From Macrocystis pyrifera (Eukaryota > Sar > Phaeophyceae > Laminariales > Laminariaceae): a stretch of 64,000 bases of DNA. Under the pieces are notes generated by a model. It made no database searches. It saw nothing but the letters and a program-made list of their open reading frames with translations, and was not told the DNA's origin. The stretch is from positions 14,086,678-14,150,677 of the forward strand of contig JASSKH010000011.1 of assembly GCA_031763025.1 (NCBI GenBank), read 5' to 3'. The translations under genes were made by a program, and so were the position numbers. Shown one piece after another: positions 3,060-47,860 of the stretch (its first letter is position 1; the number at the start of each line of letters is the position of its first letter).

Positions 3060-6000
3060 CCTAGTAACTATAAGTTTCTTCGGATAAGGGGTGGGGTCTC
3101 CGAGGTTCTTTTCATTACGCTGCGATCGTGTTTGATTCGGGAATATGTTTGGTCGTTGGAAGACATGCATGCATTCGTCAGTGAACGAACATTCACGTGA
3201 TATGCGATGAGGCATGCATTCAAGCACGGCGAGCGATAGCAGACGAGCGACGAGTGTCCTTGCATGCGAGTCAAGACAAAAATATAACCCGACTTCATGT
3301 ACGGGTTGACCGTAACGTCGAGTTCCAATGTCAACCCCACCCAGCACTCAGAGCGGTGAAGTCAGGGGGCCGCAGCACTACGATTGGAGAAATTTTAATA
3401 CTTCGGCCGTCTTCCAAACTCATTCAGCGCGTGTTGCCGCGCAACAGAACTATTAACTCCTTGCGAATGAATATAGATGGTGACAGGGGACCAGGTTGCT
3501 CTGGATGATTCGATGAGAATCGTGGTTTGGGGAGAAGTGGGGTCTCTGAGGTTCCTTTCATTAGAATTTTTTTTTCATTGAATGCCATGCATGGATTCGT
3601 CAGGGAGCGAGCATTTGTGTGATATGGGATGTGTCATGCATACAAGCGCAGCGAACGATAGACGTATATACGAGCGACGAGTGTGCTTGCGTGCGATTCA
3701 AGGCAACATATAATCTTAATTCGTCTACGGGCAGACTACAGCGTCGAGTTCCAATAGCGACCCGATCCCAGCGGTTGCTGTGCAAGAGACCATTTCCTTG
3801 CGAACGATTTGAGGTGTTGATGAGGAGCGACGTTGGTCCGGTTGATTCAATGCGTAACTTGGGTTCGGCAACGTTTGGGCCTCTGACGTTCTTTTTATTA
3901 CATTCCCCTCGTGTCTGGATTCGAGAACACGTTTGGTCATCCAAAGGCATGCATGCATTCGTCGGTGAACGAGCATTCATGTAAGTCGCGATGAGGAATG
4001 CATACACTTACAGCAAGCGATGGAGGTAAAGACGATTGACGAGATTGCTTGCATGCATGTGGCTGACGACAAAATTGTCTCTGAGTTCGTCTACGGGTAG
4101 AGAATATCGTCGAGTTCCTGTGGCGACCCCAACTCGGCTGTTGCTGGGAAAGAGAATTATTTCCTGGCGAAAGGATGGAGATATTGACTGGGAACCATGT
4201 TGACGGAGAACGACGTGAATCCGGTTGACTCAATGAGAAACGTTGTTGCGGGTGGGGTGGGGTCTCCGAGGTTCGTTTGATTACGTTCCGCTCATGTGTT
4301 AATTCGAGTATATATTTTGGTCGTTGAAAGGCATGCATGCATTCGTCGGTGAACGAGGATTCATGTGATACGCAATGAGGCATGCATGCAAGTACAGCAA
4401 GCGATGGACGCGTAGAGGATTGACGAGTGTGCTTGCATGCGGCTGACGACAAAATTGTGTCTGAGTTCGTCTACGGGTAGAGAATATCGTCGAGGTCCTG
4501 TGGCGACTCGACCTCTGCTGTTGCAGCGAACGAGAACCATTTCATGGCGAATGGATGGAGATTTTGATGGGAACCATGTTGACGGGGAACGACGTGACTC
4601 CGGTTGACTCCATGAGAATCGCTGTTTCGGGAGGGGTGGGGTCTTCGAGGTTTCTTCCAATACATTTCGCTTGTGTGTGAATTCGAGTATATATTTTGGT
4701 CGTTGAAAGGCATGCATGCATTCGTCGGTGAACGAGGATTCATGTGATAGGCGATGTGGCATGTATACAAGCACAGCGAGCGATAGACGTATAGGCGAGC
4801 GACGAGTGTACTTGCATGCGATTCAAGTCCAATTGTCGGAATTCATCTACGAGCAGACTACAGCATCGAGTTCCAATGCCGACCCGATCCCAGCGGTTGT
4901 TGTGCAAGAGAACAACTCCTTGCGAATGATTCGAGGTATTGCGATGAGCCACGTTGCTCCGGTTGACTCAATACGAAACGTGGGTTCGGCAACGGTGGGG
5001 CCTCCGACGTTCGTTTCATTACATTCCCCTCGTGATTGAAGACGATACTATCTTTGCACATCCAAAGGCAAGCATACATTCGTCGGTAAACGAGGATTCA
5101 TGTGATACGCGATGAGGCATGCGTACACGTGCAGCAAACGGTGGACGTGTAAACAATTGACGAGTGTGCTTGCATGCCGCTGACGCCCGAATTGTGTCTG
5201 AGTTCGGCTACGGGTAGAGAATATCGTCGAGGTCCTGTGTCGACCCGGCCTCGGCTGTTGCTGCGAACGAGAACCATTTCCTGGCTAATGGATGGAGATG
5301 TTGACGGGGGACCATGTTGACGGGGAACGGCGTGGCTCCGGTAGACTCAATGAGGAACATCGTATTGGGAGGGTTGGGGCCTCTGAGGTTCCCTTCATTA
5401 CATTCCGCTCGTGTGTGAATTCGAGGATATACTTTGGTCGTCGAAAGGCATGCTTGAATTCGTCGGTGAACGAGCATTCATGTGATATGCGACGTGGCAT
5501 GCATACAAGCACAGCTAGCGATAGGCGTATAGGCGAGCGACGAGTGGGCTTGCATACCATTCCAAACCAATAATCGGATATCGTTTACGAGCAGACTACA
5601 GCGTCGAGTTCCTCTGGCGACCCGGTCCCAGCGGTTGCTGTGCAGGTGAACAATTCGAGCGATTCGAGGTGTTGACGAGGAGCCACGTTACTCAGGTTGA
5701 TTTAATACGAAACGAGGGTTCGGCAACGGTGGGGCTTCCGACGTTCACTTTAGTACATTCCCCTAGTGTTTGAACTCGAGACTAGTTTAGGACATGCATA
5801 GACATGCATGCGTTCGTCGGTGAACGAGCATTCATGTTAGTCGCGATGAGGAATGCATACACGTACAGCAAGCGATGGAGGTATAGACGATTGACGAAAT
5901 TGCTTGCGTGCGGCTGAGGACAAAATTGTCTCTGAGTTCGTCTACGGGTAGAGAATGTCGTCAAGTTCCGACCCCACCTCGGCTGTTGCTGGGAAAGAGA

Positions 6001-8062
6001 ACCATTTCGTGGCGAATTTATGCTGTTATTGATGGGGCACCATGTTCACTAGAAACGACGTGAATCCGGTTGACTCAATGAAAAGCGCTGTTTCGGGAGG
6101 GGTGGGATCTCCAAGGTTCCTTTCATTACATTCCGCTCGCGTGCTAATTCGAGTATGTATTTTGGTCGTTGAAGGCATGGATACATTCGTCGGTGAACGA
6201 GGATTCATGTGATACGCAATGAGGCATGCATACAAGTACAGCAAGCGATGGACGTGTAGAAGATTGACGAGTGTGTTTGCATGCGGCTGACGACAAAATT
6301 GTGTCTGAGTTCGTCTACGGGTAGAGAATATCGTCGAAGTCCTGTGGCGACCCGACCTCGGCTGTTGCAGCGAAAGAGAACTATTGCCTGGCGAATAAAT
6401 GGAGATGCTGACTGGGAACCATGTTGACGGAGAACGACGTGGCTCCGATTGACTCGATGAAAAACGATGTTTCGGGAAGGGTGGGATCTCCGAGGTTCCT
6501 TTCATTGCATTCTGCTCGTGCGAGAATTCAAGAATATGTTTGGTCGTTGAAAAGCATACATGCATTCGTCAGTGAATGAGCATTCATGTGATATGCGATG
6601 TGGCCTGCATACAAGATAGGGGTATTGGCGAGCGACGAGTGTGCTTGCATGCGATTCAAGACAACGTATCATCTGAATTCGTCCACGAGCAAACTACAGT
6701 GTCGAGTTCCAATGGCGACCCGATCCCAGCGGTCGCTGTGCAAGAGAACAATTCCTTACGAATGACTTGAGGTGTTGACGAGGAGCACGTTGCTCCGGGT
6801 GATTGAACAAGGAACGTGGGTTCGGCAACGGTGCGGTCTCTGAGGTTATTTTCATTACATTCCACTCGTGAATGAATTCGAGAATATGTTGAATCATCCA
6901 AAGGCATGCATGCATTCGTTGGTGATCGAGGCTTCACGTGACGGCATGCATACCAGCACAGCAAGCGATGGACGTATAGAAAAGTGACGAGTGTGCCTGC
7001 ATGCGATTCACGACCAAATTGTGTCTGAGGTCGTCTACGGGTCAAGAATAACGTCGACGTCCGGGTGCGACCCGACCTCGGCTGTTGCTGCGAAAGAGAA
7101 ACAATTACTGGCGAACTGATGGAGATCTTGACGGGAAACCATGTTGACGGGGAACGATGTTGCTCCGGTTGATTCAATGACAAACGTTGGTTCGGGAGGG
7201 GTGGGGTCTCTGAGGTTCCTTTCATTACATTCCGCTGGCGTTTGAATTAGACAATATGATTGGTCGTTGAAAGGCGTGGATGCATTCTTTGGTGAACGAG
7301 CATTCATGTGCTATGCGATGAGGCATGCATACGAGCACAACGAGCGATAGCCGAACAGACGAGCGACGAGTGTGCTTGCAGGCGTATCGAGACCAAATAT
7401 AACCTAAATTCGTCTACCGGCGGGCCATAACGTCTAGATCCATTTGCGACCCAACCCACCACCCAGAATATGTTTTGCCGTCGAAAGGCATGCATGCATT
7501 CGTTGGTGAACGAACGTTCGTGTGATATGCGTCGAGGCATGCATACAAGCACAGGAAGCGACGGACGTATAGAGGATTGACGAGTGTGCTTGCATGCGAT
7601 TCACGATCAAATTGTGTCTGAGATCGTCTACGGGTCAAGAATAACGTCGAGGTCCTGGTGCGACCCGACCTCGGCTGTTGCTGCGAAAGAGAAACAATCA
7701 CTGGCGAACTGATGGAGATCTTGACGGGAAACCATGTTCACGGAAAACGATGTTGCTCCGGTTGATTCAATGACAAACGTTGTATCGGGAGGGGTGGGGT
7801 CTCTGAAGTTCCGTTCATTACAATCCGCCGGCGTTTGAATTAGACAATATGATTGGTCGTTGAAAGGCATGGATGCATTCTTTCGTGAACGAGCATTCAT
7901 GTGCTATGCGATGAGGCATGTATACAAGGACAGCGAGCGATAGCCGAACAGACGAGCGACGAGTGTGCTTGCAGGCGAATCGAGAGATAAATATAACCTG
8001 AATTCGTCTACCGGCGGGCCATAACGTCTACTCTAGTTCCATGGGCGACCCGACCCAGCACT
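3060..8062. repeat. Satellite array, ~355-385 bp monomers, higher-order organised
   Basis: About 13-14 diverged monomers follow one another. An anchor motif (ATTCGTCGGTGAACGA and variants) starts near 3171, 3593, 3955, 4339, 4719, 5078, 5457, 5812, 6185, 6562, 6916, 7272, 7497 and 7877, so spacing is mostly 354-384 bp, with one short unit of 225 bp. Three monomer types differ in the segment after CGTCTACGGG: A (GCAGACTACAGCGTCGAG), B (TAGAGAATATCGTCGAGG) and C (CGGGCCATAACGTC). Their order is C-A-B-B-A-B-A-B-B-A-B-C-B-C. The five-monomer set ABBAB occurs twice, about 1.85 kb apart. Many short frames are open on both strands but shift from monomer to monomer, so I read this as non-coding satellite. 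A degraded piece of the same sequence appears at about 11,090-11,155. Confidence 0.93.
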
Positions 8063-11639: not shown

Positions 11640-12045
11640 TTCGCGGCATGCCGTGGCATGCCATGGCACCACCTGCGGCAAAACCTTCCACGGCATCTTC
11701 CACGGTATACGACGGAACCTTCCACGGACCTCCACGGCATACCATGGGAGTCTATAACCCTAACCCTAATCCTATCCCTAATCCTAACCCAAACCCCAGC
11801 TCCAACCCTAACCTAGATGCCGTGGACATTGGGGTGCCATCGGGGTTGCCATGACATGCCGTGGGGTTGCCATGGAGTGCTGTGGCGGTAGCCGCGGGGG
11901 TTGCCATGGTACTACCCATGGCATGTCATGACAACCCCCACGGCGTGCCACGGAATCTTATGCCACACCATATATGGGATGCCATAGTGATGCCATGGTA
12001 TGCCATGGCCGGTACCCTGGCAATGCCGCGGCATGCCCACGACAA
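11640..12045. repeat. Degenerate CCATGG/CCACGG palindromic repeats around an interstitial telomeric tract
   Basis: GCCATGGCATGCC-type and CCACGG-type words recur throughout. In the middle, 11,755-11,816, lie about ten imperfect CCCTAA units (TAACCCTAACCCTAATCC and variants such as CCTATCCC). The flanking words run as CCACGG to the left and mostly CCGTGG/CCATGG to the right, so the tract sits between roughly inverted arms. No coding content is supported. Confidence 0.8.
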
Positions 12046-12769: not shown

Positions 12770-14500
12770 CAACCAACTGCACATGGCAGATAGGGTAGCC
12801 AGGTACCGGGCAGACTAAGAAGTAGAACATGCCTATACTACTGACTCGTACCACCAACTGGTGCAGCTGGTTCGAACGTGGTCTTCCTTCGTCTTCCTGT
12901 TGTTTTTGTTTATTTTTGTTTCATTTTATTGTCTTCTTTGCGGTGACCCTATGTGATTTTCATTTCTCTTCCTTTCTCCGATTGATAAGCCTTATTGAAG
13001 GAGTCGTGTGGCGTGGGTGGATGACGAGCCTGCTCTGCTCGTTTCGTACTGTGTGACGCCGAGGGGCCGGGCATAGTTGACGAACGCTGGACGATGGTGG
13101 CAGACAGGGTAGCAAGGTACCAGGCGGGCCAGCAGGGAGACCCTGGCTGTGCTACTCGTACCATAAACTGCTGCCGCTACCTGGAGCATGCCTTGTGCTT
13201 TGTTTGGTTTGACTGTTATTTTTACCTTGGTTCTTAGTCTTACTCTGTTGACGACTAGTGGTGTTTTCTTCTTTTTTTTTTCTTTTTTTTTTTCCAGCTC
13301 GTTCTTTTCAAGTGTCTGCCACGTCCCCTACGCGGGGGGACGATGGTTTGTTGCTATACTGAAGTATATACATGTACCAGGTATATTTTAGTTTCTTTTT
13401 TTTTTGTTTCTTTTCTCTTTCGAATTGTCTTTGTTTTTGTTTTTGTTTTTTCTCTTTGTTTCGTTTTTCTTTCTCTAGGTCATGGAATGTGTATGTCGTG
13501 CCTGTCGTACGCAGTATGATGACATGTGTGTGTTCTTCACTTTAAACCGTTCTTCTACTCGTCGACATCCAGCAAGCCCAGTGTCCGTGTTGATTCTTCA
13601 CCCTAGAAAGATACGAGCTCTGTGGTCACAGACTACGACACAGATATAACACACCGTAATGCATTAATAGCCTACGTAATACCATGCCTTCGCACTAGGT
13701 GCGGCCGACACAACATACATACATACGCCAGCAACCAAAATACACCATAAAGAAAGAGAAGCAACGAAAAAACCAAACCGAAAAAGAACAAGAAAAAGAA
13801 ACAGAAAAGGAGAAGAATCTCAAATAAACATATAAAATGGGAAGCCAAAGCTCAGACACATACATACTTACCCCGAGCATGAGCCAAAAGGGACGTGCAA
13901 GGGGAAAGATACGAGAAGGAAAAAGGGGACTATGCATCCCGGTGAACACTTAACTAAGTAAAAAGAGCAATAGTGAGTCGGCCAAAATACGCTCGTCACC
14001 CACCCACTATGTAGTACTTCTTTCATAAGGATAAGAAGGGAAAACAATCAAAATGCATACCGAACGGCCGCAGCAGTTGGCGGTACGAGTAGCAAAGAAA
14101 CGTCCAACCTATTAGTCGGCCTGGTACCTTGCTACCCTATCTGCGGTCTCTCTGCTACTCTCTTCTACCGCGGTTTCCCTTCTACTCCTCCTGTTCGCCC
14201 CCCTGCCCCCATATACTTGTACGGTGTTCCCTCTACCCCTCCTGCTGTTACCCCTCCCCCCATTCCCTCTAACACTACCTGCAGCGGATGCACGGCGCTG
14301 TCTACTCAGCTTTGCCTCAGCCTCGTGCCACCTGCCCATGAACATGGTATTGCATTACATACGTGGCAACGTAGTATCTCTGTGGCGTAGCTTTGTGACC
14401 ACAAAACTTGTATCTCTCTAGGTTTGAAGAATCGGCATGGACACTGGTTGTGCTGGATGTCGACGCGTAGAAAGAACGGTTTAATGTGAAGAAAACAACA
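12770..14500 (+). mobile_element. LINE family A 3' end, split by an inverted LINE copy
   Basis: Bases 12,770-13,523 cover the end of the LINE ORF and most of the 3' UTR. Bases 14,346-14,500 resume in register (GCATTACATACGTGGCAACG) and run to the end motif GAAGAATCGGCATGGACACT, GTCGACGCGTAGAAAGAACG, followed by AAAACAACAACAAC. The same join is uninterrupted in the copy at 24.2 kb, which proves an insertion. The copy is 5'-truncated and non-coding. Confidence 0.85.
13528..14345 (-). mobile_element. LINE family A 3' end inserted in another LINE
   Basis: Read on the minus strand it begins inside the C-terminal part of the LINE ORF (residues like MFMGRWHEAEAKLSRQRRAS, then Gly/Arg-rich sequence) and runs through the 3' UTR to the conserved tail near 13,535-13,650 (on the plus strand TTAAACCGTTCTTCTACTCG, GTCGACATCCAGC). 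It is cut at its 5' end and lies antisense inside the plus-strand LINE end. A short possible target duplication (ACATG) is seen at both junctions. Confidence 0.82.
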
Positions 14501-15050
14501 ACAACCCGTCATCAACTCTTCTATGAAATTCGTGCCCATCCCCTTTGACGAAGCATGTCAACGATTCAACACCTCTCCACAAACCCCGGATTTCCTCCGT
14601 TCCGAAGTCCGTTCGATCTTCTTCATCAATCAGTGGATTTGAGGCGTCACGTTTATGCGCCCACCAACCAAATTTATTTGTGGTTATTCGCGGCAAAAAA
14701 ATCCGTCGAAAGCACGTCAATACCTAATTATCCGACATCACTCACTCTGCCGGTAATAATGGTCCTAGGTAACCACAGCGTGTGTCAGCCACTTCTCCAA
14801 TAAGTGGGACACTCCCCTCTATTTTCTTTCGACCGTCGTCCACAAGGCCTCCGGTGACCAAACAACTTCGACCACAAGAGGCACCGGTGGAGTACATTGT
14901 GTGAGTGATCTAAACAGGGTCTTAGGCACCCCAGTATATTTTGCTGCAGGTTGTAAGTCCTTCGGCCCATAGTCACAAGGCGTGTCGATTGCTTCACTTC
15001 TTGCGCGCTCAGTTTGGGTACGACTCACAAGTACAAAGGTAGCCACCTGG
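14501..15050 (-). pseudogene. Unrecognised coding-like fragments
   Basis: Two minus-strand frames look protein-like. One, at 14,819-15,046 (75 codons), contains DLQPAAKYTGVPKTLFRSL, which resembles the helix-turn-helix found at the N-terminus of Pipsqueak/pogo-type transposases. The other, at 14,481-14,720, contains NPLIDEEDRTDFGTEEIRGL and CFVKGDGHEFHRR. Bases around 56,400-56,430 hold a related VKGD motif on the minus strand. The frames are not continuous with one another. A decayed DNA transposon is one possibility; host gene remnants are another. The identification is weak. Confidence 0.35.
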
Positions 15051-23597: not shown

Positions 23598-24360
23598 TGT
23601 TGTCTTCTTTGCGGTGACCCTATGTGATTTTCATTTCTCTTCCTTTCTCCGATTGATAAGCCTTATTGAAGGAGTCGTGTGGCGTGGGTGGATGACGAGC
23701 CTGCTCTGCTTGTTTCGTACTGTCTGACGCCGAGGGGCGAGGGGCCGGGCATAGTTGACGAACGCTGGACGATGGTGGCAGACAGGGTGGCAAGGTACCA
23801 GGCGGCCCAGCAGGGAGACCCTGGCTGTGCTACTCGTACCATAAACTGCTGCCGCTACCTGGAGCATGCCTTGTGCTTTGTTTGGTTTGGCTGTTATTTT
23901 TACCTTGGTTCTTAGTCTTACTCTGTTGACGACTAGTGGTGTTTTCTTATTTTTCTTTTTTTTTCCAGCTCGTTCTTTTCAAGTGTCTGCCACGTCACCT
24001 ACGTGGGGGTACGATGGTTTGTTGCGATACTGAAGTATATACATATACCAGGTATATTTTAGTTTCTTTTTTTTTGGTTCTTTTCTCTTTCGAATTGTCT
24101 TTGTTTTTGTTTTTGTTTTTTCTCTTTGTTTCGTTTTTCTTTCTCTAGGTCATGGAATATGTATGTCGTGCCTGTCGTATGCAGTATGATGACATGACAT
24201 TGCATTACATACGTGGCAACGTAGTATCTCTGTGGCGTAGCTTTGTGACCACAGAACTTGTATCTCTCTAGGTTTGAAGAATCGGCACGGACACTGGTTG
24301 TGCTGGATGTCGACGCGTAGAAAGAACGGTTTAATGAGAAGAAAACAACAACAACAACGA
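23598..24360 (+). mobile_element. LINE family A 3' end, uninterrupted copy
   Basis: The cleanest 3'-UTR copy. It begins GTCTTCTTTGCGGTGACCCT, passes GGAGTCGTGTGGCGTGGGTG, GACAGGGTGGCAAGGTACCA, a pyrimidine-rich stretch and GGCAACGTAGTATCTCTGTG, and ends GATGTCGACGCGTAGAAAGA, then AAAACAACAACAACAACG. It is very similar to 12.9-13.5 kb apart from a CGAGGGG duplication. It has no coding part: it is 5'-truncated. Confidence 0.88.
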
Positions 24361-26479: not shown

Positions 26480-28460
26480 CTACAATTGATTCAGGAAGAT
26501 GTGTGTTACTTGGATTTGTCTTGCCAAATGTTTTCGGCGACTGTCTATTTATTGAAGTTGTCCCATACATGGTCAATTGATCTCTGCGATTGCCTATAGA
26601 TTGAAATTGTCCAGGCAATTGATTTCGAATACCATCTACTAGTTGGAATTGTGTCAGCAATATATTTCGAGTGCTGTCTATTAATTGGAATTGCCCGAAC
26701 AATTGGTGCGGAGACTGCTAATTAATTGGAATTATTCAGCAAATTGATTTCGGGTGCCGACACAACAATTTGAATTTTCCAAATAATTGATTTCGGGTGT
26801 TGTCCACTCAACTTCAGGCAATTGATATCGCGAGCTGTCACTTAATTGGATTTGTCTGAACATTTGAATGAGGCTGGTGCTTATTAACTGAAATTGCCCG
26901 CACAATTGATTTCGGGTGGTGTCAACTAAATGAAATTGTCTCAACGGACTTTGGCGATTGGAAAGTAGTTGGAAGTGTCCTCACAAAATTTTCAGCTGTC
27001 GCGCAAGAAATCAACCGCTCGATGAAGGTCGTGGCCGTGTACCTACAATAGTTATTGTATCATGATAGATACTCCCCGTTGAATTGATTCTACTCGTAAT
27101 CTAGCACAATAAAGACCTTGAAAATGATTGCGTATAATAGAGGGAAGTTCCCGATACTGGCGAAGAGGCAATACTAGCATGGTGGTACTGTTGTGTGCTA
27201 CCCCAATCAGATGTAACTCTACAAGTAGCTGCCAGCTTTGCAATAATACCAGATCACTCCTAAACTCGATAGTCATGACAATTCGTATTGGTAGATTGTT
27301 TCCGAAACGCGATGTAAATCGCCTCAAATCAATTGTTCAAGAAATTTCAAAGACAGCATCTTTCGCCAGCACAACTTCAATCGATGGGCAGTCCCTGCCA
27401 GCTTTTTCTTCTAGAAAATTCCAATTATTGAAAGGCACAAACCGTCAATTGTTCAGACATTTCCAATTTATAGACAGTCTCTGAAATCAATTCTCTGGGC
27501 AACTTCAATTCACAGACAGTTTCCGAAATTATTTGTTCGGACAATTCCAATTGTTTGACAGTACTCGATATCGATTGTACGAATAAACCAATTAATAGAC
27601 AGCAGTATCCAAGATGAACTATACAAACAATTTCAATTGCTAGACAGTCTTATGGCATCACTTGCCCGGACTACTCCTATTAAAAGACAACTTCGTGACT
27701 CTGCTGTAGGGGCAATAGTCTTTCAAAAGGTCTATTGTCCAATGCATAAGCAGCAAAGGGCGGGACACCTCAACTGTACAAAGCTTAGTATTTTTTGTCC
27801 GCATGCAGGAAGTTTTCATACCGCCTAGCGCATGTGCTCAGATGTAAAACATTTAAAAAAGGTTTCACGAAACAAAATAATCCGTACCTGGTATATGCAC
27901 TGTTATTTGAAATATACTGGCAGTCGATTTACGAAACTACCCACCAATAGCATTGGCTGAAGTAGTTTGGGAGTTTTTGTATTACTTTTTAGTCGAAATT
28001 GTCGGGATAATTGATATTGTATACTGTCTATGAATCGGAATTGTCCAGATAATTGATTTAGAATGCAGTCTGCTAAATGAAATTGGCCGAACAATTGATT
28101 TGGGAAACTGTCTTTTAATTGTAGTTGTCCGGACTATTACTTTCGGCGTTAGTCTACTAATTGAATTTGTCCGGACAACTATTGTAGTTGTCCGGACTCA
28201 TACTTTCGGCGTTAGTCTACTAATTGAATTTGTCCGGACAACTATTTCGGGGCGGCGACAATCAACTGGAATTGTCGTGACAATGATTGAGTAGACAACT
28301 GTCAATTAGTATTGGTCGGGCAACTTATTAATGAGAAGGTCCATTAATAGGAATTGTCCGGACCATTGATTACGGAGATTGCCTATAAAGCGAAATAGTA
28401 TGGACAACCGGGCCATAAAGGGGTCACTTAATATAATATTGTCTGGATACTAGAGCTCGA
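26480..28460. repeat. Palindrome-pair minisatellite, subfamily I (42-43 bp unit)
   Basis: Units of 41-43 bp, anchored for example at 26,606, 26,648, 26,690 and 26,731, each hold two short palindromes: ATTGTCCGGACAAT and a CTATTAATTG-type word, separated by TGATTTCGGGTG. Blocks at about 26,480-27,000 and 27,990-28,460 have one orientation; the block at 27,330-27,690 is inverted (GACAGTCTCCGAAAT follows the second palindrome). Bases 27,000-27,330 and 27,700-27,990 are non-repeat interruptions. A recent ~66-bp duplication is seen at 28,118-28,250. Frames here are short and shift; non-coding. Confidence 0.85.
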
Positions 28461-28539
28461 CGCCTTCCAATTAACTGAAATTAGGGACCACAATGGACGG
28501 TCAATTTGAATAGAAAGCTATTAATAGACTATTGGACTG

Positions 28540-28690
28540 TTTTCTATTGTCCGCGATGTTATTTTAATTGCACTGTTTTCTGCTTGTTTGTATTTTTATC
28601 GAGATATTCTTATCGATACCTGTCCTGCGACCACGGACCGCATTGTACTGTGGCGATGAGTTATTGTGAGAACAACGTCAACAGTCATAT
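28540..28690 (+). mobile_element. LINE family B 3'-end fragment
   Basis: CTGTCCTGCGACCACGGACC, GCATTGTACTGTGGCGATGA and GTGAGAACAACG match the 3' UTR seen at 54.18-54.24 and 54.56-54.62 kb. The conserved end motif is missing, so both ends are cut. Confidence 0.65.
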
Positions 28691-28929
28691 AAGGACCGCC
28701 GTACACAGCATCCAACCCAAAGCTAGTACGGCAACGCAGCCGCACAGATCACCCCCGTAACCAGCCAGCAGGCGAACGACAACACCAGCCCCGACGTTCT
28801 CGGGCCATTGTTTCCCTGTGTGCAAGCCGAAGCGGATGGTTATAGTTTCAGGGAAATTCAGGATGATACCCTCCATACCAAGGTCGGGAGTTCGTTTGAA
28901 AATGAACAATCTGCACCTGACATGTTTAG

Positions 28930-29690
28930 TCGAACAGAAAGAGCTTCAAGTTGCAGCACCACCATTACTTGATGAACGCTATCTACAGCAGAACTTCTAC
29001 GCAGCAAACATCAGCATCATCAGCACCTGCCACAGTAGTAGCAGGACACACGCGGCCAGGGTCATCGTCGCTGTACGCTCGGCTTGTCATTGTTGCCCTT
29101 GCACCTTGCGAACTCGAACTTCGTCATAATTTGAAGACGATAATTCTGCACCTGACATGATTTGTCGAACAAAGAGTGCTTCTCGGTGCAGGTGCCACAA
29201 CTACTACTACTGATATTCGACATGTCCAGCAGAGCTTCTCCAGCAGCAAATCCGCAGAAGCAGTAGCGGTAGGACACACGAGGCCAAGGTCAGCGTCGCC
29301 GTTCGCTCGGCCCGTGTCAGTATAACCATTGAACCCTTTGCACACGTGCTCGATGTTCTTGTGTCTTTCCTGGTTCCGCACTCATAGTTTGAAGACGTAT
29401 ATTCTACAACCTGATATGTGTCGAACAGAGCTTCTCGGAGCAGGGGCCACCACTACTACAGCTGTACGACATCCACAGCAGATCTTCCCCTGAATGTCCG
29501 TCCCCTCATCAGTAGGAAGGTGGGCCTGACAATATCACCTGCAGCATATCTTGGGGACATGGCCCGAACGTTGCTGCGGACAGATTGGCACAGTCTGCCC
29601 ACGAGTACTGGTAGAGTTGGGTTTCGTGAGGTGGAACTAAAACAACAACAAAAATCACGTACGATATTTTACGGTGTTTGATTCTGTTTT
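28930..29690 (+). repeat. CAG-cored dispersed repeat R3, three tandem copies
   Basis: Three diverged units start near 28,905, 29,135 and 29,390. Each carries ATTCTGCACCTGACATG-type sequence, CAGAGCTTCTC, a degenerate AGCAGCAG core, then AGGACACACGAGGCCA and GCTCGGCTTGTCA, and CCCTTTGCACACGTGCTCGA. Period is about 230-250 bp. The third unit differs on its right, ending CGTTGCTGCGGACAG and GTTTCGTGAGGTGGAACTAA, like the copy at 45.45-45.56 kb. No gene. Confidence 0.75.
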
Positions 29691-30090
29691 TTAAACAATG
29701 GCCCACCCATATTGTGGTTACAAACGTTGCCGCACCTAGCTCGACGAGCTCTGAGCGACTTACCACGGCACCAGCGCGCGAAGGTTTCGTTTGTGTGTGT
29801 GCGTGCACCGAGCCTGCCGGGACTGATATTGGTGACGTGTGCGTTGAGCATGGTCGACAAATGTGACCGAACAAAATGTTGACTCACGATGACTGAGACA
29901 CACAAGCAGAGAAACTCAAAACGAGGCACCCTTCCCTCGTATGTGAGCCTTTCGGAAGAGGCTATTTTTTCTTTGGAAAACCAAGAAAAAATAGTCGCTC
30001 TTCGCGCTCGCACACCTAATTATTAGCCTCGAGAGTTGTTGTGTGTGGGGACAAACCCTGGACGATGGGCAACAGCCCCTGCAATAGCAA
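29691..30090. other. No supported feature
   Basis: Frames on both strands lack recognisable motifs. Confidence 0.35.
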
Positions 30091-30094
30091 CATT

Positions 30095-31400
30095 ATTTGG
30101 TGCAATGGACGGGTCTATTGTCGTCGGCAAAGGCTATCGATTGGCAAGTTTTTCGATCAATTGTCGTCGGTAGTGTCTATCAATAGTTTACGAACCCAAC
30201 ATATTGTTCATGCAAGAGAGTACTCTGTGCTGAAGTACCTGGGTTGAAATCTATTGTCACCGACAATGGCTATCAACGGATAGCTTGCAGAATCTACTGC
30301 GGTCCACAGTGACTATCGATGAACACATTTCGTGATCTATTGTGGCCGGCAATGGTTTTCGATAGATGTGTTTCTTGATCTCTTGTGACCGGTAATGGCT
30401 ATCGATAGATACGTTTCTGAGTATTGTGACCAGCAAGGGCTATCGGTATATACATTTCTGGTGTGTTGTGGTCAGCAATCCCTATCGATGGACACCGTTG
30501 CGAATCGATTGTGGTGGACAATGTCTACCGATGGACACCATCACCCGCGTACTTCCACACGTACAATGAAATTTGATTCACTATGCAACGCAATAGTTTG
30601 TGCGGCACCAATGTCATGTTTTCATCTTGCGATCACCACCAGCATGAACTGAGTGCATGGTGTGTCGTGAGGAGCAGCAATGTAGGTGCATGGCATAGCG
30701 TGAAGGAGGGCTCAACGTCGTGTGTTTCAACAAGGCAGTGGGAATCACGAGGGTCAAGTGTGTTGCATTGTCGGCTGTGTTGTTGTAGTTGGTACTCTGT
30801 ATAAATGGTGATTCCCAATCGGATACGCTCTGTACGGATAGGATATATGAGCTTAGGTGTGCATATACCCTGGACAAGAGAAAGGAACTAGAACATTGCC
30901 GCTGGAGTAGACCCGAAAAAGCGTTTACCAATGTATATGTTAACGACAATAGACTGGCAACACTGACTATCGATAGACACTGTTAACCACACGAAGCGGG
31001 CAACGCTGTATTTTGATAGATTATGTCAGGAACAGCAATGGAGACAATATGCCTTTGCCTTAACAATGGGGTCACAAGGTTGTCTATAGATGACCATTGT
31101 CGTGAACAGTAGATGTTGGAGAAGCAACCGTGATACATTTTGTTTGAACAATAGACTAAAACGTTCGCCTATCGATGGCTATTATTGCCGCCTACAAATC
31201 AATAGCCATCGTCACCCACAACAGACTGTCGGGCGTGTTTTCGCTATAGACTATTGCCGAAACCTATTGTATACCGTGGAATGATGCATGTCGATGGCCA
31301 TTCTTGACGACCACCGAAGCTTCTATTGCCGCCAACAATATTATAGGTACGCGATTGTGTCCACCAGCAATGGCGATCGCCATCCACAATAGATTGTTGG
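30095..31400. repeat. Palindrome-pair minisatellite, subfamily II (43 bp unit), blocks 1 and 2
   Basis: From 30,095 to 30,545 units start near 30,117, 30,160, 30,253, 30,296, 30,339, 30,382, 30,423, 30,465 and 30,509. The unit is ATTGTGGCCGGCAAT, then GGCTATCGATAGACAC, then TTTCTCGATCT. A second block at 30,940-31,400 is more diverged and mixes orientations (CTATTGCCGCCAACAA, CAATAGCCATCGTC). Between them, 30,550-30,940, is non-repeat sequence. The unit aligns with subfamily I at 26.5-28.5 kb. Confidence 0.83.
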
Positions 31401-31840
31401 CCGGGCTCCGAAAAAAAAATGAATCTGACTCAACTCATTTCCAGACGGGACGAAACTCGAGTTAAGAAACGGAAATCTGATAATTTTCTTGTCAAGGTGG
31501 TTTTGGTTTTAGTATTCAGATTCTTTTTGAAAGTGCAGTTGATGAAAGACAAGTAAGGGTATTGCCTTGAATATATTTCCGAACATAAAAAACAATCGAT
31601 AAAAATAAAGATGACCAGCATCCGAAGAACTAACTGCTGTTACTTTGTTCAACCAAGTTTGGGCCAAACAAACTCCAGATGAGAAACGCCAAGCTTAGAA
31701 TTTTCAGCATGTTTTGTTTTGAGTTTAACGATCCACTTTTAATTCAAAGTGGAGTTACTACAGATTTACCGAGGTGTGCTCGGATTAAATTGGAAGGGCA
31801 TCTACGCTGCGCTATATTGTCGGAAGGCTATTAATAGCAT
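31401..31840. other. No supported feature
   Basis: AT-rich sequence without a recognisable gene. Confidence 0.35.
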
Positions 31841-31865
31841 GATAATAATAGTAGTAATAATAATG

Positions 31866-31937
<72 letters not shown>

Positions 31938-31939
31938 GT
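31841..31939 (+). repeat. AAT trinucleotide microsatellite
   Basis: About 30 ATA/AAT units with a few interruptions near the ends. It produces meaningless poly-Ile and poly-Tyr frames. Confidence 0.95.
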
Positions 31940-32179
31940 AAAAATTATAATAATAGACTACTGCTGTACCAGCGCTACACAAGTTGATGACTGATACCAA
32001 TATCTTGGTGCGCGAGTTTCTATAAATAGTGTAACTAGTGACATCTAATTATACAATGTCTTCAAATGAGTGTGAGAGCGTACGATATTCAGAACATGAT
32101 AACGTCGGTTCACATTACTACATACATACGGAACATGACATTCCTCGTATATCGTTAGATGAGTGCAAACTATCCCCGA

Positions 32180-32615
32180 GATGGCTATTGATGGATAGGT
32201 TGTACAATCTATTGCGGCCGGCAATTGCCATTGATACCCATCTAGTACAATCTATTGTGGTCGGCAATGGCCGTTGATAGATCTGTCGCAAAATCTATTG
32301 AGGCCGGCAATAGCCATCGATAGACTTCTCGCACAATTTATTGTGGCCACCAATGGCTGTCGATAGACATCTCGCACAATCTATCGTGCCCGGCAACGGC
32401 CATCGATCGACATCTCGCACATTCTACTGTGGACTGCAATGGCCATCGATGGACGAAGTTCACTGCCTATTGTGTTCGACAATGTCTATCGATCGACAAT
32501 ATCACCAGTCTATTGTCGCCGACAATATCTATCTAGAGATACCTTTCACAATTTATTGTCGCAGACAATATACATCGATAGATTCCCCCCCTCGTCTATT
32601 GTCGAAGCAACAGAC
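32180..32615 (+). repeat. Palindrome-pair minisatellite, subfamily II, block 3
   Basis: Ten units of about 43 bp, e.g. anchors at 32,211 and 32,254. The unit ATTGTGGCCGGCAAT, GGCCATCGATAGACAT, CTCGCACAATCT is in the same orientation as block 1. The first palindrome varies (CGCCGAC, GGCCGGC, GTTCGAC) but remains self-complementary in most units. Confidence 0.85.
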
Positions 32616-32880
32616 TATTATTCATTGTCCAGAGTGTGGTGGGTGCATACATCGTGTCCATGTTGTCTTCTCCCAATCTTATTATTAATTGTGTGCTTGC
32701 GTTCCGATAAGGTGTAGTGTTGTTCCAAAACGGCTATATACAAGGGACCGAAAGTGCAGAACTACCTACAGCAAAAGCGCAGCAGTATCACAAGACAAAT
32801 CAAAACCGATGTGACGCACGTGAAGACTACCACAAACCACAACAGGCATCCCTCCATATTATCCACCAAAAAACGACCAC
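32616..32880. other. No supported feature
   Basis: Spacer between the minisatellite and the 270-bp tandem repeat. Nothing was recognised. Confidence 0.35.
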
Positions 32881-33849: not shown

Positions 33850-36290
33850 TAACCGTTCTTTCTACCCCTCGACATCCAGCACAACCGGTGTCCTTGCCGA
33901 TTCTTCAATCCTGCGTAGAAAAATACAAGTTATAAGGTCACAAAACTACGCCACAGAGATCCTACGTTGCCACGTATGCAGTAAGCATAGTGGACAATGC
34001 AATCTCATATCATCATACTGGATACAACGGACACGACATCCACTTTCTACGAAACAGAGGAACCAAAGAAAACAAAAAAGCGAAGCTAAAACAAAGGAGA
34101 AAATCGAAATACAACAAGAAAACATAGAAGAGACAAACTGTCGTGCCCCCCCGCAGGGCATGTAGCAGACAATTGAATAAAACGAGCTGGAAAAAACGAA
34201 AAATAATAAAACACCTCTACTTGTAAACAGAGTAAGCCTAAGAACCGAGGGATAATAGCAGGCAAACCAAAGCACAAAACACCCTCCAGGTCGCGGCAGC
34301 ACATTGCGGTACGAGTAGCATAGCCAGGTTCTCCCTGCTAGTCCGTGTGGTACCTTGCTACCGTGTCTGCCGTCTCCGTCCAACGTTCGTCAACTATGCC
34401 CCGCCCCTTGGCATCAGACAATTCGAAAGAAGCACAGCAAGGTCGTCATCCACCCACGCCACACGACTCTAAAAATGCTTATCATTAGAAGAAAGGAAGA
34501 GAAATAAATAAAGCGAAAAATCACGGATAAAGAAACGAAGACAAAGGAAGACCACTTCGAACCAGCTGAACCAGTCGGCGGCACGAGTAGTATAGGCATG
34601 TTCTACTTCCTAGTCGTCCTGGTGCCTTGCTACCCTGTCTGCCATCTGCTTCCTAGTTTCGTCCCCCGCAGTTTCCTTCTACTCTGCCTGTTCCCCACCC
34701 TCCCCGCATTCCGTTGGTCGGGTTTTCTGCTACTCCTCCTGTTTCTCCCCTCCCCCCCATTCCCTTCAACAACACCGACGGCGGACGAGCGGCGCTGGCT
34801 CTTTAGCCTAGCTTCATTCTCGTGCCACCTCACCATGAACCGTTCGGCTGCTTCGGGAATCCTCCAATACCACTTCCCCGCCTTTTTTGCTGCAGCCGAC
34901 CACAGTGCGGTTTCAACTGCCAACACCAAGGGGGCAAAGTTCCGTTTCCCCATTCGGTGGCTCGGAACTCCCTAAGGTCTTCGACTATGCATCTATGCCA
35001 AGTCTTGAACTGTCCGCCAGGTCTGGGGTTCTTCTCACCAGCCATCGTCCCGAACAATACCCGACTGGGTATTTGCTGCATTCTTTGCCGTGCCACTCCC
35101 CCCGCAAAGAAGAGCCACCGTTTACGAATGGTCGTTTCCATGCCCTCGCAACGTGTCATCTAGATCTATTTCCCGTAGGAGAGGGTGGTATGGTCAGTAC
35201 GAAGTCGGCGCTGGAAGCCAATGACTCGCAACAGGACTTGATGGTGAGCCGTGCGAATCTTGGCAAAGCGCTCTGCTCTGACGGTCCACGTCACACACCC
35301 GTACATCGATTTCCCAAACCACCTCGAACTTCAGCTTTCCGACTTTCAGGCTAAGGGGGGAGGTCGTCCTATCAGACATCTCCGGGCCGAACGGTTTGAG
35401 GCATGCTCACATGAGATGGATCCGTCGGTCGATTTCGAGCGAGAGGTCAGCATTTTCGTGGATAATTCCGCCAAGGTGTACAAAAAAACTGGACCGTCTG
35501 CTTATACCTCTGGCCTGCTGCTTCCATGACCAGTGGTGGTGCGAGAGTCGTCTGGTCTGGTGTTTGTAGAAGCATTGTCTCTGTCTTCTTTTCCGACACC
35601 GTGTGGCCTGCTGCTTCGAAGACAGTCACGATGACTGTCATCATTTTTGTGAGTCCTTCAGCCGACTTCGAGACAAGTCCTGCGCCAACGAAGCACAACA
35701 TGCCCCAAACAAGCTTTCGCACGCATGCCAACGGCTCCTGCTCCTCCGTTCCGACTACTCCAGCATCACAGAGTTGGACCAATTCCCTTACGATGGCTTG
35801 GTCTTGGCTGAAGCTTACTGGTACCACGTAAAACGCAGCAGCGAAGAAAACGGTGAATAGTAACGGTAACACACCAGCCTTGCCGCAGCCCCTGACATCA
35901 AACCATTTCGAGAGCTCGCCGTCATCCGTACGCACACGAGCGCGCATGCCATCGTGGAAGTTCTCAGCATCTTGGTTGGTACACCAAAGCGTGTGAGTAC
36001 CTCCCATGAGAGCCTTTGGTCGAATGAGCCGCACATGCGCTTTCTGCAGCTCGATGAAGCACACGTACATGGGATGTTCCTGTGTCGTCCGAGCTCTTGC
36101 AACCCGCGCGCGACGAACAACATATCAATCGTTGATCGAGCGGGGGGAGGCTGAAGCCGCACTCTGTACTCCGGGAGAAAATCCTCGGTCTTGCAGGAGT
36201 TGCCGAGGCGAAAAAGGACAAAGTAAGGATAACTTGGCCTTGTCGAGACAAAATCAGTTTCGATCGATGTCATCCTCGCCAATAGCAGGG
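33850..36290 (-). mobile_element. LINE family A, 5'-truncated copy with RT, C-terminal region and 3' UTR
   Basis: On the minus strand: an RT fingers fragment (PARSTIDMLFVARGLQELG, about 36,100), a motif A region that is out of frame, then a 207-codon frame (35,447-36,070) with MRARVRTDDGELSKWFDV, VWGML and KKTETMLLQTPDQTTLAPP. The expected YADD after VWGML reads CFVG, so the catalytic aspartates are gone and this copy is dead. The C-terminal region follows: RQRMQQIPSRVLFGTMAGE and FKTWHRCIVEDLREFRATE (about 34,920-35,160), then RFMVRWHENEARLKSQRRSS (34,830). The 3' UTR runs from about 34,600 to 33,850 and ends with the family tail. It is the reference for the truncated 3' ends at 9.1, 12.8, 13.5 and 23.6 kb. 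Confidence 0.9.
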
Positions 36291-38227: not shown

Positions 38228-39403
38228 GCTCGGTGGCTACACGCATGTGCTCGTCAGCGCCGGCCGATGCAAAGTATGCCCCTTTCTTGATGTCAGGCAT
38301 TAAGTCAAGCAATATAAAGTATAAAGAATAGACATGTACGTGTGCGATTCGCAACAGTGCCTACATTTGCTTCAGCGAACACGAGTAACGACAGATGTAG
38401 AACCTAAACAGAAACATACGTGGTGCGTTTTCGGAGCTACAGTAGGTCTACTTTCTTAAAGTCTAAGCGTGTGGTGTATTTTTCGGGTAACATTTCCTTG
38501 TCTAGCATCCGCCTTCTACAAGTCACCGTCCGAGGAAAGTGTTGGTCTTCGGTAGCACGCCAGGTTACCTACGAAGCGCGAATAATACGACAGCGACAAC
38601 CGTCTACCTCGAAAGACAACAACACCGCCATCAAAAAAAAAAAAGCCCGGCACTAATGCGGATAGGGTTATCCACAATTGTGCGCACACAGAGACCGTTG
38701 CTGAGTCAAAGGGGATAGGCCGCACTTGGAAACGCACGGTTTCTGAGAGACATACGAGATATCAAGGGGTGCCCGTTCGTTATGGCCATTCGCAATCTTC
38801 TATGTTCTGAGGAATCTGCGTTCGTCCGTCTCGTATATATTCCACAATGGTCGAACAAAAAAAATAATTATGGTTCATAAGTACCGGTTTATAACAGTAT
38901 TGGTATGTCCGTCCAAACGTACCGTTCTTGTAGTTCCTATTATGTTGTATAAACCTTGATGTTTCGTTCTGCCGGCGTTTTTACTGCACCCATGGAGTAT
39001 GCGGCGGTTTGTATCTTCGAACGAGACGACAACAACGGTATGGAGACTGAAGAAAGCGGCCTAGAACAATGAGAAACACGTATGTGTGTCCCCTGTGAAG
39101 GGCGTATCGTGCAGACGGCCTTGCGGCAACTATTTCGGAACGATAATCGTCGGCACATTGACATCCCGGAGCAAGGGACAAAACGAGCAATATGTTTGTT
39201 GTCATCAACGAACGAACCGTCCGCAGGCAGTGTAAATGTGCAGCAATACTAAGACCATGCTGTGTCCGTGCCGTACAATTCATTTCGACTGTAACGCGGG
39301 GCCTAGCTTCGTCAACTTCCTAAACCAGTCGCCAATACTGCAGTTGTAATCGTCATGGTTTTCATCGTCACCTTTTTGCTTTGAACTCCCACGTCTGAGT
39401 GGC
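38228..39403. other. Upstream region of the glycosyltransferase-like gene
   Basis: No gene was recognised. A TATATA word is not clearly placed relative to a start, so no promoter is called. Confidence 0.4.
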
Positions 39404-39577
39404 GTGGGACACCACCGGCAAACCAGGCGCCTAACTCCGTGCATGGGTAACCAGAGTATTCGCTGCTTTGTTTCCCGCCCTATGCCGTATGTAATGACAT
39501 CCCCTGCGTGTGACGAAGCAGCAGGTACAACTGTGGAACCATATGCGAGGTCACAACTACCTCAGCCCTTGCGACGG

Positions 39578-40483
39578 ATGAGGGTAATCTTGGCGATCTT
39601 AGCGGTGGCAGTGGTTAGAACCACAGCTGATCCCTCAGTAGCCCTGGCCCCCTTCGATCACGAATCGTTGGAGGTAAATGATTTCACGTGCGCTGACGCT
39701 ATCAGGCTGATACCACCCAGCGTGGAAACACCTGTGATATTGCAACTATTCAACAACGACTACTTGAAGATGGAGGAGAATTTCTTGTTGATTATGAGAC
39801 AAAATGCGCCTCAACGACTCGGTAGCTTGTACCTTGTGTGCTTCGACAGTGATTCCGTTGCTAGGATGGATGCATTGTTTGGCCTTCCCTGCGCTCTTAT
39901 CAATGGTGTGACGGACAGGCGTCTTCTACTAGCGACGAGGGTAAAGATGATTGGGTGCCTGTTGGAAGGAGGACATGATGTCCTTGTGTCCGACAATGAC
40001 GCCTTGTGGCTAGCTGACCCAGTCCCAGATTTACAAGCGACTGACGGCAATATGCTTTTCCAGCGGGGCAGTTTCCCTAGCTGGTTCAGTGAGCCCGTTA
40101 ACGGATTGACGTTGTGCGACGGGTTCGCGTTGTATAGAGCGGGTGGCCAGGGCATGGACAAGTTTCAAGAACTCATGAGAAACGCGCTGAACGACACCGA
40201 GTCAGATCAAGTGGCCCACAACCAGGCGGCACACGAGCTCGGTCTAACGTGGGACTACAATGCGAAGAACAGCGATATGAGGAATACTGAAAGCACGGCG
40301 CCCGGACTAGGAGTCTTGACGGCCCTCCCCGACCCCTTTGTCGTGACGCTTCTGCCCCATAACAAATACACTCGTAACTGCGACAAGACACCCATATCAT
40401 CAGATACCCTCATTGCCCATTGCTTTCCTCGCAAACGAAGGGTGCGTGCCATGAAAAAATTAAACTTGTGGTTGGCAGACTAG
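39578..40483 (+). CDS. Nucleotide-diphospho-sugar transferase-like protein (GT77 / PF03407 type)
   Basis: The frame is open from 39,404 (359 codons). I prefer the in-frame Met at 39,578 (302 residues) because RVILAILAVAVV directly after it makes a signal peptide or type II anchor; the 58 residues before it are low-complexity. The lumenal domain holds TPVILQLFNNDYLKM, LYLVCFDSDSVARMDALFG, then KMIGCLLEGGHDVLVSDNDA followed by LWLADP. This is the family's buried strand ending in a DxD box (DND) that binds the metal and sugar nucleotide, and the W...DP pair. FQRGSFPSW, LCDGFALYRAG and a late NKYTRNC follow. Length and order fit a short GT77-like enzyme, probably in the Golgi transferring a sugar to protein or polysaccharide. 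Donor and acceptor cannot be told. The single-exon frame is unbroken. It stands alone among repeats. Confidence 0.85.
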   Translation: MRVILAILAVAVVRTTADPSVALAPFDHESLEVNDFTCADAIRLIPPSVETPVILQLFNNDYLKMEENFLLIMRQNAPQRLGSLYLVCFDSDSVARMDALFGLPCALINGVTDRRLLLATRVKMIGCLLEGGHDVLVSDNDALWLADPVPDLQATDGNMLFQRGSFPSWFSEPVNGLTLCDGFALYRAGGQGMDKFQELMRNALNDTESDQVAHNQAAHELGLTWDYNAKNSDMRNTESTAPGLGVLTALPDPFVVTLLPHNKYTRNCDKTPISSDTLIAHCFPRKRRVRAMKKLNLWLAD

Positions 40484-44869: not shown

Positions 44870-45780
44870 GCTATTTGCATATACGTATTCCACATGCTCG
44901 ACCACTAGTAACAGCAACGCGACACTCCCCTCTAATAACTGCACTTCGAGCATAGCATACTCAATAGCATGTACTCGATATTGGTGTGTGTTTGCTGATT
45001 CCTCAACGGTAAATTCATCATACTTTGAAGACGAAAACCTGCACCTGGCATGTATCCCACATAGTGAGCTTCTCGTAATAGGTGTCACCACTACTCCTGT
45101 ACGCCATCTACAGCTGAGCTTCTCCAGCAGCAGAACAGTAGCTGCAGCAGAAGCAGCAGCAACCGTAGCAATAGGGCACAAGGGACCAGGGTCAGCGTCG
45201 CTGTACGCTAGGCTTCTCAGTCCAACCCTGGAATCCTTTGTAGACGTGGTCAATTTTGCTGAGTGCATTTTTTTTCTCTAAGTCGATTTTCGGCAAATTT
45301 GAAGACGAAAAATGTACAACATTACCTTTGTCTAAAAGAGAGATCTTCATGGAGTAGGTTCCGTCGCCTCTAGTGGTGTACGATATTTACAACGGAGCTT
45401 TAACCTGCGTCTTCGTCCTGTCATCAGTACAACGGTGTGCCTGGCCATACCAGCTGCGGCATTTTCTTGGGGACACAGCCCGAACGTTGCTGCTGTGGAC
45501 AGGATCATTCTGCTTACGAGTACTTGTAGCGTTGCGTTTCATCAGGCCGAACTAAAACACTCGAACCGTTATGACAGGTGCTACGACTACCACTGCTGTA
45601 CGACATCTATAGCAGATATTCTCTGTTCCTCCGACCCGTAATCAGTTGGTGGGTGGGCCTGGTAGTGCCACCTGTAACATGTCTGGCGGAAGCAGCCCGA
45701 ACGTTCCGGTGCAGAAGCACATCTACCTAGGAGTACTCGTGAGGTGCCGTGAGGTGTCGTGAGGTGCCGTGAGGTGCCGC
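44870..45780 (+). repeat. CAG-cored dispersed repeat R3, tandem copies
   Basis: Units at about 44,870-45,290, 45,300-45,560 and 45,565-45,740 share GAGCTTCTCCAGCAGCAG, AGGGCACAAGGGACCAGGGT, GCTGTACGCTAGGCTTCTCA, GACGTGGTCAATTTTGCTGA, and in the later units CAGCCCGAACGTTGCTGC. At 45,739-45,779 a 10-bp unit (GTGAGGTGCC) is repeated four times. Confidence 0.72.
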
Positions 45781-47560: not shown

Positions 47561-47860
47561 TATGTCTCATATTGTGATGTCTCACACACATACAAATCCT
47601 GTTGTACTGGCGGCGGCAGCGGCAACAATAGCAGCAGTATCGGCAGTATCAGCTTCATCAAAAGCAGTAGTAGTAGGGCACATGAGGGCGAAGAGCATCG
47701 TCGCTGTACGCTCGGCTTGTCGGCCTATCCTTTGACCCCTTTGTGTCTGTACTCGAGTTTTGTGTGTGCTTTGTGGTTCAACTCTGATTTCGGCATAACT
47801 TGAAGGCGGAGATTCTACAACTTGAGGAGTAGCCAACCACCGCTGCTGATACCGCACGAC
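47560..47860 (+). repeat. CAG-cored dispersed repeat R3, copy
   Basis: A degenerate AGCAGCAG/CGGCAGC core at 47,600-47,670 is followed by AGGGCACATGAGGGCGAAGA, GTACGCTCGGCTTGTCGGCC and CTTTGACCCCTTTGTG. Confidence 0.7.

What the first reader, a model, noticed from the sequence alone, without database searches (positions are those of the whole stretch)
26480..32615. One minisatellite family, two subfamilies: sequence changed but the two palindromes were kept
Seen: arrays at 26.5-28.5 kb and 30.1-32.6 kb look different but share a 42-43 bp period and align in the pattern ATTGT-N5-CAAT, then AT(TA or CG)ATAGACA, then TCTC. In subfamily I the palindromes are ATTGTCCGGACAAT and a CTATTAATTG-type word; in II they are ATTGTGGCCGGCAAT-type and CTATCGATAG. 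Core bases swapped (CCGG versus GGCC, TTAA versus TCGA) while self-complementarity stayed. Inference: something selects dyads spaced half a unit apart, such as a dimeric DNA-binding protein, cruciform-driven amplification or a structured transcript. Blocks also flip orientation.
Basis: partly seen in the sequence, partly recalled or inferred. Interest (0 to 1): 0.78.

Follow-up and report, generated by a model that had tools for sequence, protein, structure and literature searches.

The report
Six flipping arrays of palindromic repeats
A stretch of what looks like nuclear DNA of a eukaryote holds six short arrays of one old 42-43 base repeat, in alternating orientation, whose units kept two palindromic words better than the rest; this fits sites for a DNA-binding protein, perhaps of a mobile element, rather than a folded RNA, but it is not proven.

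Summary
The observation largely holds. Six blocks (26482-32683) of one repeat family alternate in orientation: subfamily I (42 bp) as -,+,-, then subfamily II (43 bp) as +,-,+; nothing else in the window scores above shuffles. The consensuses agree at 29 of 41 aligned columns.

The central inference fails. Paired positions do not covary, and the subfamilies show one compensatory double change where 0.30 is expected (P 0.27). Instead each half-site is conserved by itself: TTGT/ACAA columns 0.87/0.84 against 0.68/0.66 elsewhere, in each of the six blocks, and column conservation agrees between subfamilies (rho 0.51; reached by 0 of 300 and 2 of 300 neutral simulations).

Best reading: an old array of sites for a DNA-binding protein, most likely subterminal repeats of a dead foldback-like DNA transposon. 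No terminal repeats, target duplications or transposase were found, so membership is not shown; a plain old minisatellite is nearly as likely.

The parts
26482..27011 (-). Block A, subfamily I, about 12-13 units of 42 bp
   Evidence: three segments of 61.2, 197.5, 126.7 bits; shuffle maximum 10.9 in 6 shuffles
27257..27716 (+). Block B, subfamily I, about 11 units
   Evidence: four segments of 16.9, 11.2, 180.0, 60.4 bits
27900..28482 (-). Block C, subfamily I, about 14 units; contains a 63-bp (1.5-unit) duplication at 28118-28246
   Evidence: segments of 184.6 and 192.3 bits
28483..30077 (.). Middle stretch between the two clusters; no repeat units above the shuffle maximum, no Pfam hit above cut-off in the ORFs tested; partly a dispersed repeat also at 45.0-45.8 kb
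30078..30539 (+). Block D, subfamily II, about 11 units of 43 bp
   Evidence: segments of 65.5 and 252.8 bits
30889..31397 (-). Block E, subfamily II, about 12 units, the most decayed block
   Evidence: segments of 61.7, 56.8, 39.3, 16.2 bits; one + fragment of 6.4 bits, below the shuffle maximum, lies inside
32173..32683 (+). Block F, subfamily II, about 12 units, the best kept block of II
   Evidence: 414.6 bits

Best explanation
An old tandem family of binding sites for a sequence-specific DNA-binding protein that recognises inverted half-sites. Each unit carries site 1 (TTG-N6-CAA in I, TTG-N7-CAA in II; half-sites kept, core free) and, 14-14.5 bp away, site 2 (ATTAAT in I, ATCGAT in II). 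A period of 42 bp is close to four helical turns, so sites in an array would lie on about one face of the DNA (inference). Blocks of about 11-14 units in alternating orientation on both sides of a 1.6-kb middle stretch look most like the subterminal or terminal inverted arrays of a non-autonomous, foldback-like DNA transposon, the protein then being its transposase. Shown: arrays, orientation, homology, dyads, half-site conservation, no covariation. Inferred: protein binding, mobility, transposase.
For: Half-site columns are kept better than the rest in each of the six blocks (half-sites/rest: A .87/.70, B .84/.68, C .89/.64, D .89/.62, E .76/.64, F .88/.70). The contrast, +0.19 in both subfamilies, is reached by 0 of 600 neutral simulations with shared ancestry, CpG and G+C mutation bias and by 0 of 75 in an earlier set. 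Column conservation agrees between subfamilies: rho 0.51, 0 of 40 circular shifts, 0 of 300 and 2 of 300 simulations, 0 of 75. TTG and CAA are intact in 21 and 22 of 32 units (I) and 22 and 22 of 34 (II), where the rate of the other columns would give about 0.3 of units, and are lost independently, as expected of a protein that reads half-sites rather than of a hairpin. Alternating inverted blocks. [quoted passage not shown]
Against: No terminal inverted repeat with target duplication above the shuffle maximum at any of 11 block-edge pairs, searched within about 100-170 bases of the edges only; no transposase domain in 10 ORFs of the region. Of the mirror-placed spacers only B-C against D-E shows anything, an 11-bp match that 4 of 100 shuffles equal. 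Only 5 of 32 subfamily-I units keep both TTGT and ACAA (7.0 expected if independent), so complete sites are not favoured as such, and I and II differ by one base in half-site spacing. The split into outer and core columns was drawn after I had seen the column frequencies. The weaker dyad-2 contrast of I is reached by 14 and 5 of 300 simulations. Local mutability beyond CpG and G+C content was not modelled.
Confidence: 0.4

Rival explanations
1. An ordinary old minisatellite without function: one unit was amplified, parts were inverted, two subfamilies split, and the units then decayed; the palindromes are inherited from the founder unit.
For: About 27-29% of bases differ from the consensus; units are about as similar between as within blocks (I .577-.610, II .537-.646) and no block is clearly a unit-by-unit copy of another (15 block pairs, lowest permutation p .022), so the radiation is old and roughly star-like; dyads do not covary.
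Against: Star-like neutral decay gives nearly even columns (chi-square mean 51 and 54 in 25 simulations against 137 and 159 observed, none as high), and the unevenness falls on the half-sites in both subfamilies. With much shared ancestry the chi-square alone is not unusual: 8 and 4 of 25 simulations reach it, 10 and 2 of 25 with CpG decay added.
Confidence: 0.35
2. Selection on base-paired structure: cruciform or structured transcript.
For: Folded as RNA against 40 shuffles, blocks C (z -6.6 and -5.6 on the two strands) and F (-4.4, -5.6) are strongly, and D (-3.6, -1.9) and E (-1.0, -3.3) partly, more stable than shuffles; the B-C region as a long hairpin has z -9.2 against 15 shuffles.
Against: Blocks A and B show nothing (z -0.7 to 0.3); extra stability is expected from dyads and inverted blocks whatever their cause; no compensatory excess within or between subfamilies; the perfect dyad of I leaves no loop.
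Confidence: 0.1
3. Decayed coding repeats: 42 bp is 14 codons and one frame of subfamily I reads QLSGQFQLIDSLRN.
For: In that frame substitutions to stop are fewer than expected (13 against 28.4, z -3.55) and synonymous changes somewhat more (106 against 89, z 2.29).
Against: A frame with a stop in its own consensus scores as high on synonymous changes (z 2.73); 43-bp units of II shift frame at every copy; indels and inversions break the frame; stop avoidance is confounded with the conserved CAA and TTG columns.
Confidence: 0.05
4. A host regulatory or chromosomal element (insulator, origin, centromere-like array) bound by a host protein, not a transposon remnant.
For: Same half-site evidence as the best explanation; no transposon ends found. 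TATCGATA-type words recall BED-finger sites of DREF and BEAF-32 (recalled; one search is a listing of papers that hold these words).
Against: Inverted blocks around a middle stretch look like a mobile element; there are no expression or chromatin data either way.
Confidence: 0.1

Closest known systems
Galileo and other foldback-like DNA transposons
   Same: Tandem repeats in inverted orientation around a middle stretch; secondary transposase-binding sites in the repeats (PMC3688188, passages)
   Different: No terminal repeats, target duplications or transposase found here; three alternating blocks per side; far shorter unit; the word palindrom does not occur in that paper's main text
Tetris foldback element of Drosophila virilis
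   Same: Internal tandem repeats in terminal inverted arrays, able to become satellite-like (PMC4079207, passages)
   Different: About 220-bp units and 8-10 bp target duplications; none found here
piggyBac and piggyBat transposon ends
   Same: Subterminal palindromes, in piggyBac bound by one domain from each monomer of the dimer; asymmetric ends (PMC11707139, passages)
   Different: A few sites per end instead of about 66 units; no transposase or target duplication shown here
HINE / Helentron elements with satellite-like central repeats (oyster)
   Same: Short tandem arrays inside a mobile element, with microsatellite and palindrome (PMC7492417, passages)
   Different: Monomers of mostly 140-180 bp; inverted block pairs not described in the passages read
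Ordinary minisatellites
   Same: Divergent tandem units of 42-43 bp
   Different: Conserved half-sites, alternating orientation, two subfamilies side by side

Membership tests
Foldback-like DNA transposon | Inverted pairs of arrays made of tandem repeats | tested here: met
   Six blocks in alternating orientation
Foldback-like DNA transposon | Terminal inverted repeat with flanking target-site duplication | tested here: not met
   11 edge pairs against 12 shuffles each, none above the shuffle maximum; only about 100-170 bases around each edge were searched
Foldback-like DNA transposon | Several copies per genome, mobilised by a transposase | not testable with these tools
   No whole genome held for the window; 10 local ORFs gave no transposase domain
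Minisatellite | Tandem units of some 10-100 bp | tested here: met
Structured RNA or cruciform element | Compensatory changes at paired positions | tested here: not met
Protein-binding array with inverted half-sites | Half-site columns conserved above the rest of the unit in both subfamilies | tested here: met
   the split into half-site and core columns was chosen
Protein-binding array with inverted half-sites | A protein binds the unit | not testable with these tools
   Needs a binding assay
HINE / Helentron | Subterminal inverted repeats and a 3' palindrome in defined places | not tested
   A hairpin at 29955-30003 and an (ATA)n tract at 31842-31955 exist, but no element ends were defined
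piggyBac-like element | TTAA target duplication and piggyBac transposase | not tested
   The edge search was general and no TTAA-specific search was made; 10 local ORFs gave no transposase domain

The most novel reading that the evidence does not exclude
A mobile-element or host array of about 66 units in which two subfamilies, with half-site spacing differing by one base and one on each side of a middle stretch, serve as left and right ends for one or two dimeric proteins, with three alternately oriented blocks per end: an end architecture not described in the passages I read.
Probability: 0.12. Interest if true: 0.65.

Novelty: new member of a known kind. Interest (0 to 1): 0.38.

Why it matters
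It separates two ideas that palindromic satellites invite. Palindromes can persist in diverging repeats without any covariation, because each half-site is kept for itself. If the arrays are transposon ends, they would show how many weak transposase sites survive in an old element and how its left and right ends drift into subfamilies. If they are neutral, they are a warning that palindromes shared between subfamilies are no evidence of structure.

Tried and rejected
Own-genome search: no whole genome is held. Exact-pattern scans for either unit: viral contigs 0 hits in five scans, genome contigs 0 hits in two scans; these collections hold viral contigs and prokaryote genomes, and exact patterns miss diverged units, so absence says little about a eukaryote. 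A first segmentation with too low an entry cost flooded the output, which was cut; one search replaced it.

Spacer homology (seven segments, 49 comparisons, 100 shuffles each): eight comparisons were equalled by at most 5 of 100 shuffles, four of them a segment against its own reverse complement. The strongest match between two spacers (27244-27302 with 27933-27984, inverted, 0 of 100) overlaps degenerate units that assigns to blocks B and C. Block pairs as unit-by-unit copies: 15 tests, lowest p .022 (D-F) and .064 (C-F), not convincing. Coding frame, RNA folding, terminal repeats: see rivals and evidence against. Word counts in the window: TTGT-N4-ACAA 9 against 1.8 expected, 5 of the 9 inside the blocks; TTG-N7-CAA 35 against 25.6 (5 of 100 shuffles as high), 17 of the 35 inside the blocks; YATYGATRG 17 against 4.2, 16 of the 17 inside the blocks of II, both strands counted.

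The host organism is not established. A brown alga is my guess from CAG-rich tracts and the look of the reverse transcriptase fragment, by recall. Papers: five read as passages only, all others seen as listings. Listings of searches for such a repeat in brown algae, foldback elements or palindromic minisatellites showed no title that describes it; that is no proof of absence in print.

Rows dropped: repeat rows of under 30 aligned bases were left out of the statistics (32 of 39 rows kept in I, 34 of 36 in II). The profiles were trained on these arrays, so the scores of the arrays are inflated; the statement that matters is that nothing outside them exceeds 7.4 bits against a shuffle maximum of 10.9. 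Block limits and differ by some tens of bases; those are given.
Full report
What is there. Tandem Repeats Finder reports 42-43 bp arrays at 26600-26693, 27445-27602, 27993-28133, 30249-30489 and 32204-32454. Wraparound alignment recovers the units, and a segmentation with both profiles on both strands gives segments that I grouped into six blocks: A 26482-27011 (I, -), B 27257-27716 (I, +), C 27900-28482 (I, -), D 30078-30539 (II, +), E 30889-31397 (II, -), F 32173-32683 (II, +). Elsewhere in the window the score stays at or below 7.4 bits, while six Markov shuffles reach 10.9. So within these 64 kb the family is confined to this locus. The blocks are alike in size, 460 to 583 bp, about 11 to 14 units.

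Homology of the subfamilies. Consensus I is CAATTGTCCGGACAATTCCAATTAATAGACAGTCTCCGAAAT, consensus II ATTGTGGCCGGCAATGGCTATCGATAGACACCTTGCACAATCT; 29 of 41 aligned columns agree. The score of a slightly earlier version is reached by 0 of 1000 dinucleotide and 1 of 1000 mononucleotide shuffles. CCGG is kept in both; II has two bases inserted before it and one lost after it, which moves it off the centre of the palindrome.

Dyads. Over all centres of the unit, the two with most complementary cells are 9.5 and 23.5 in I (56.9%, 43.9%) and 8.0 and 22.5 in II (61.2%, 53.3%). On MAFFT alignments, G-U counted as a pair, the dyads together pair in 67.0% and 70.8% of cells, against 26-51% when slid by 1-3 columns. 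They lie 14 and 14.5 bp apart, a third of the unit. The dyads are real and shared.

No covariation. With partners shuffled among units the pairing does not fall: z -0.76 and -0.43 (I), 0.81 and -1.10 (II), where z over all 65 and 67 centres has a spread of about 1. The tool count agrees: covariation score 0.155 against 0.149 (181 of 500 shuffles as high) and 0.187 against 0.189 (276 of 500). Two measures lean the other way in I only: percent paired (46 of 500) and pairs with a change on both sides (10 against 7.6, 43 of 500). Between the consensuses one pair, TA to CG in dyad 2, changed on both sides and stayed complementary; random placement of the 12 differences gives 0.30 such pairs, P 0.27 for one or more; one pair of dyad 1 (columns 2 and 17 of I) changed on both sides and lost pairing.

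What is conserved. The half-sites TTGT and ACAA of dyad 1 are kept at 0.87 (I) and 0.84 (II), its core at 0.62 and 0.59, dyad 2 at 0.78 and 0.78, the rest at 0.68 and 0.66. This holds in each block, in A/T and in G/C columns apart (few of the latter: 2 and 3), and pooled over the 16 and 13 units without gap or insert, none of which are from block E. Per unit the half-site excess is 0.19 (n 32) and 0.18 (n 34). Column conservation agrees between subfamilies (rho 0.51; 0 of 40 circular shifts). Neutral simulations run through the same pipeline with shared ancestry, CpG and G+C bias reach that rho in 0 of 300 and 2 of 300 runs and the half-site contrast in 0 of 300 and 0 of 300 for each subfamily; the dyad-2 contrast of I is reached in 14 and 5 of 300, that of II in 0 and 1. 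The first of these two sets matches the observed mean conservation, the second is somewhat more decayed than the real arrays. The division into half-site and core columns was made after seeing the frequencies, so its numbers are somewhat flattering; the agreement between subfamilies does not depend on it. The halves are lost independently: TTG and CAA both intact in 14 of 32 units (14.4 expected) and 17 of 34 (14.2 expected, Fisher p 0.06).

History. Mean identity of units is about the same within and between blocks of a subfamily (I .577-.610, II .537-.646). Neighbouring units are little or no closer than distant ones in A, B and E, somewhat closer in C, D and F. No block is clearly a unit-by-unit copy of another. 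So the blocks were probably made, and inverted, while the units were nearly identical, and most units then diverged one by one. A younger event is visible: a 63-bp duplication in C. In a star-like history even decay is expected, which makes uneven columns meaningful; with heavy shared ancestry it would be less so.

Mechanism. I take the arrays for binding sites of a protein that reads half-sites, most likely as a dimer, and the alternating inverted blocks around a 1.6-kb middle stretch for the remains of a foldback-like DNA transposon. For this speak half-site conservation and geometry; against it speak missing terminal repeats and target duplications, no transposase domain (the weak hits there are all below the curated cut-offs) and no sign of selection for complete sites. 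A plain old minisatellite is the main rival and nearly as likely. Folded RNA or cruciform is less likely: C and F, and in part D and E, fold better than shuffles but A and B do not, and compensatory change is missing. Coding repeats are unlikely.

Novelty. Tandem repeats with transposase-binding sites in inverted arrays are known (Galileo, PMC3688188; tandem repeats in inverted arrays also in Tetris, PMC4079207) and palindromic subterminal sites are known (piggyBac, as told in PMC11707139); all three seen as passages. Ectocarpus, a brown alga, has 7.9% DNA transposons and 3.35% tandem repeats (PMC12477816, passages), but the window's organism is not established. I file the locus as a new member of a known kind, with membership in foldback transposons not shown.

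Noticed in passing
11755-11813: Degenerate (TAACCC)n array, 9.8 copies at 75% match: an interstitial telomere-like tract.
   Followed up: no
3815-7384: Tandem array of a 379-bp unit, 9.6 copies.
   Followed up: no
28895-29644: Dispersed repeat also at 45011-45766 and in part at 47659-47825, about 69-73% identical over the longer stretches.
   Followed up: partly
14342-14505 and 24192-24355: 164-bp copies 97% identical, within a repeat family with further copies near 9-16, 23-24, 33-34 and 54 kb.
   Followed up: no
29955-30003: Imperfect hairpin with T-rich and A-rich arms (score 42; largest of 100 alignments to a shuffled copy 33).
   Followed up: no
31726-31757: Second, weaker hairpin (score 36 against 34).
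   Followed up: no
28118-28246: Young 63-bp duplication, 1.5 repeat units, 96% matches, inside block C.
   Followed up: partly
52105-52656: Reverse transcriptase fragment (RVT_1, E 5.8e-9); an ORF at 35447-36124 (-) reads similarly by eye but has no Pfam hit.
   Followed up: partly
39350-40480: ORF with a nucleotide-diphospho-sugar transferase domain (PF03407, E 2e-8).
   Followed up: no
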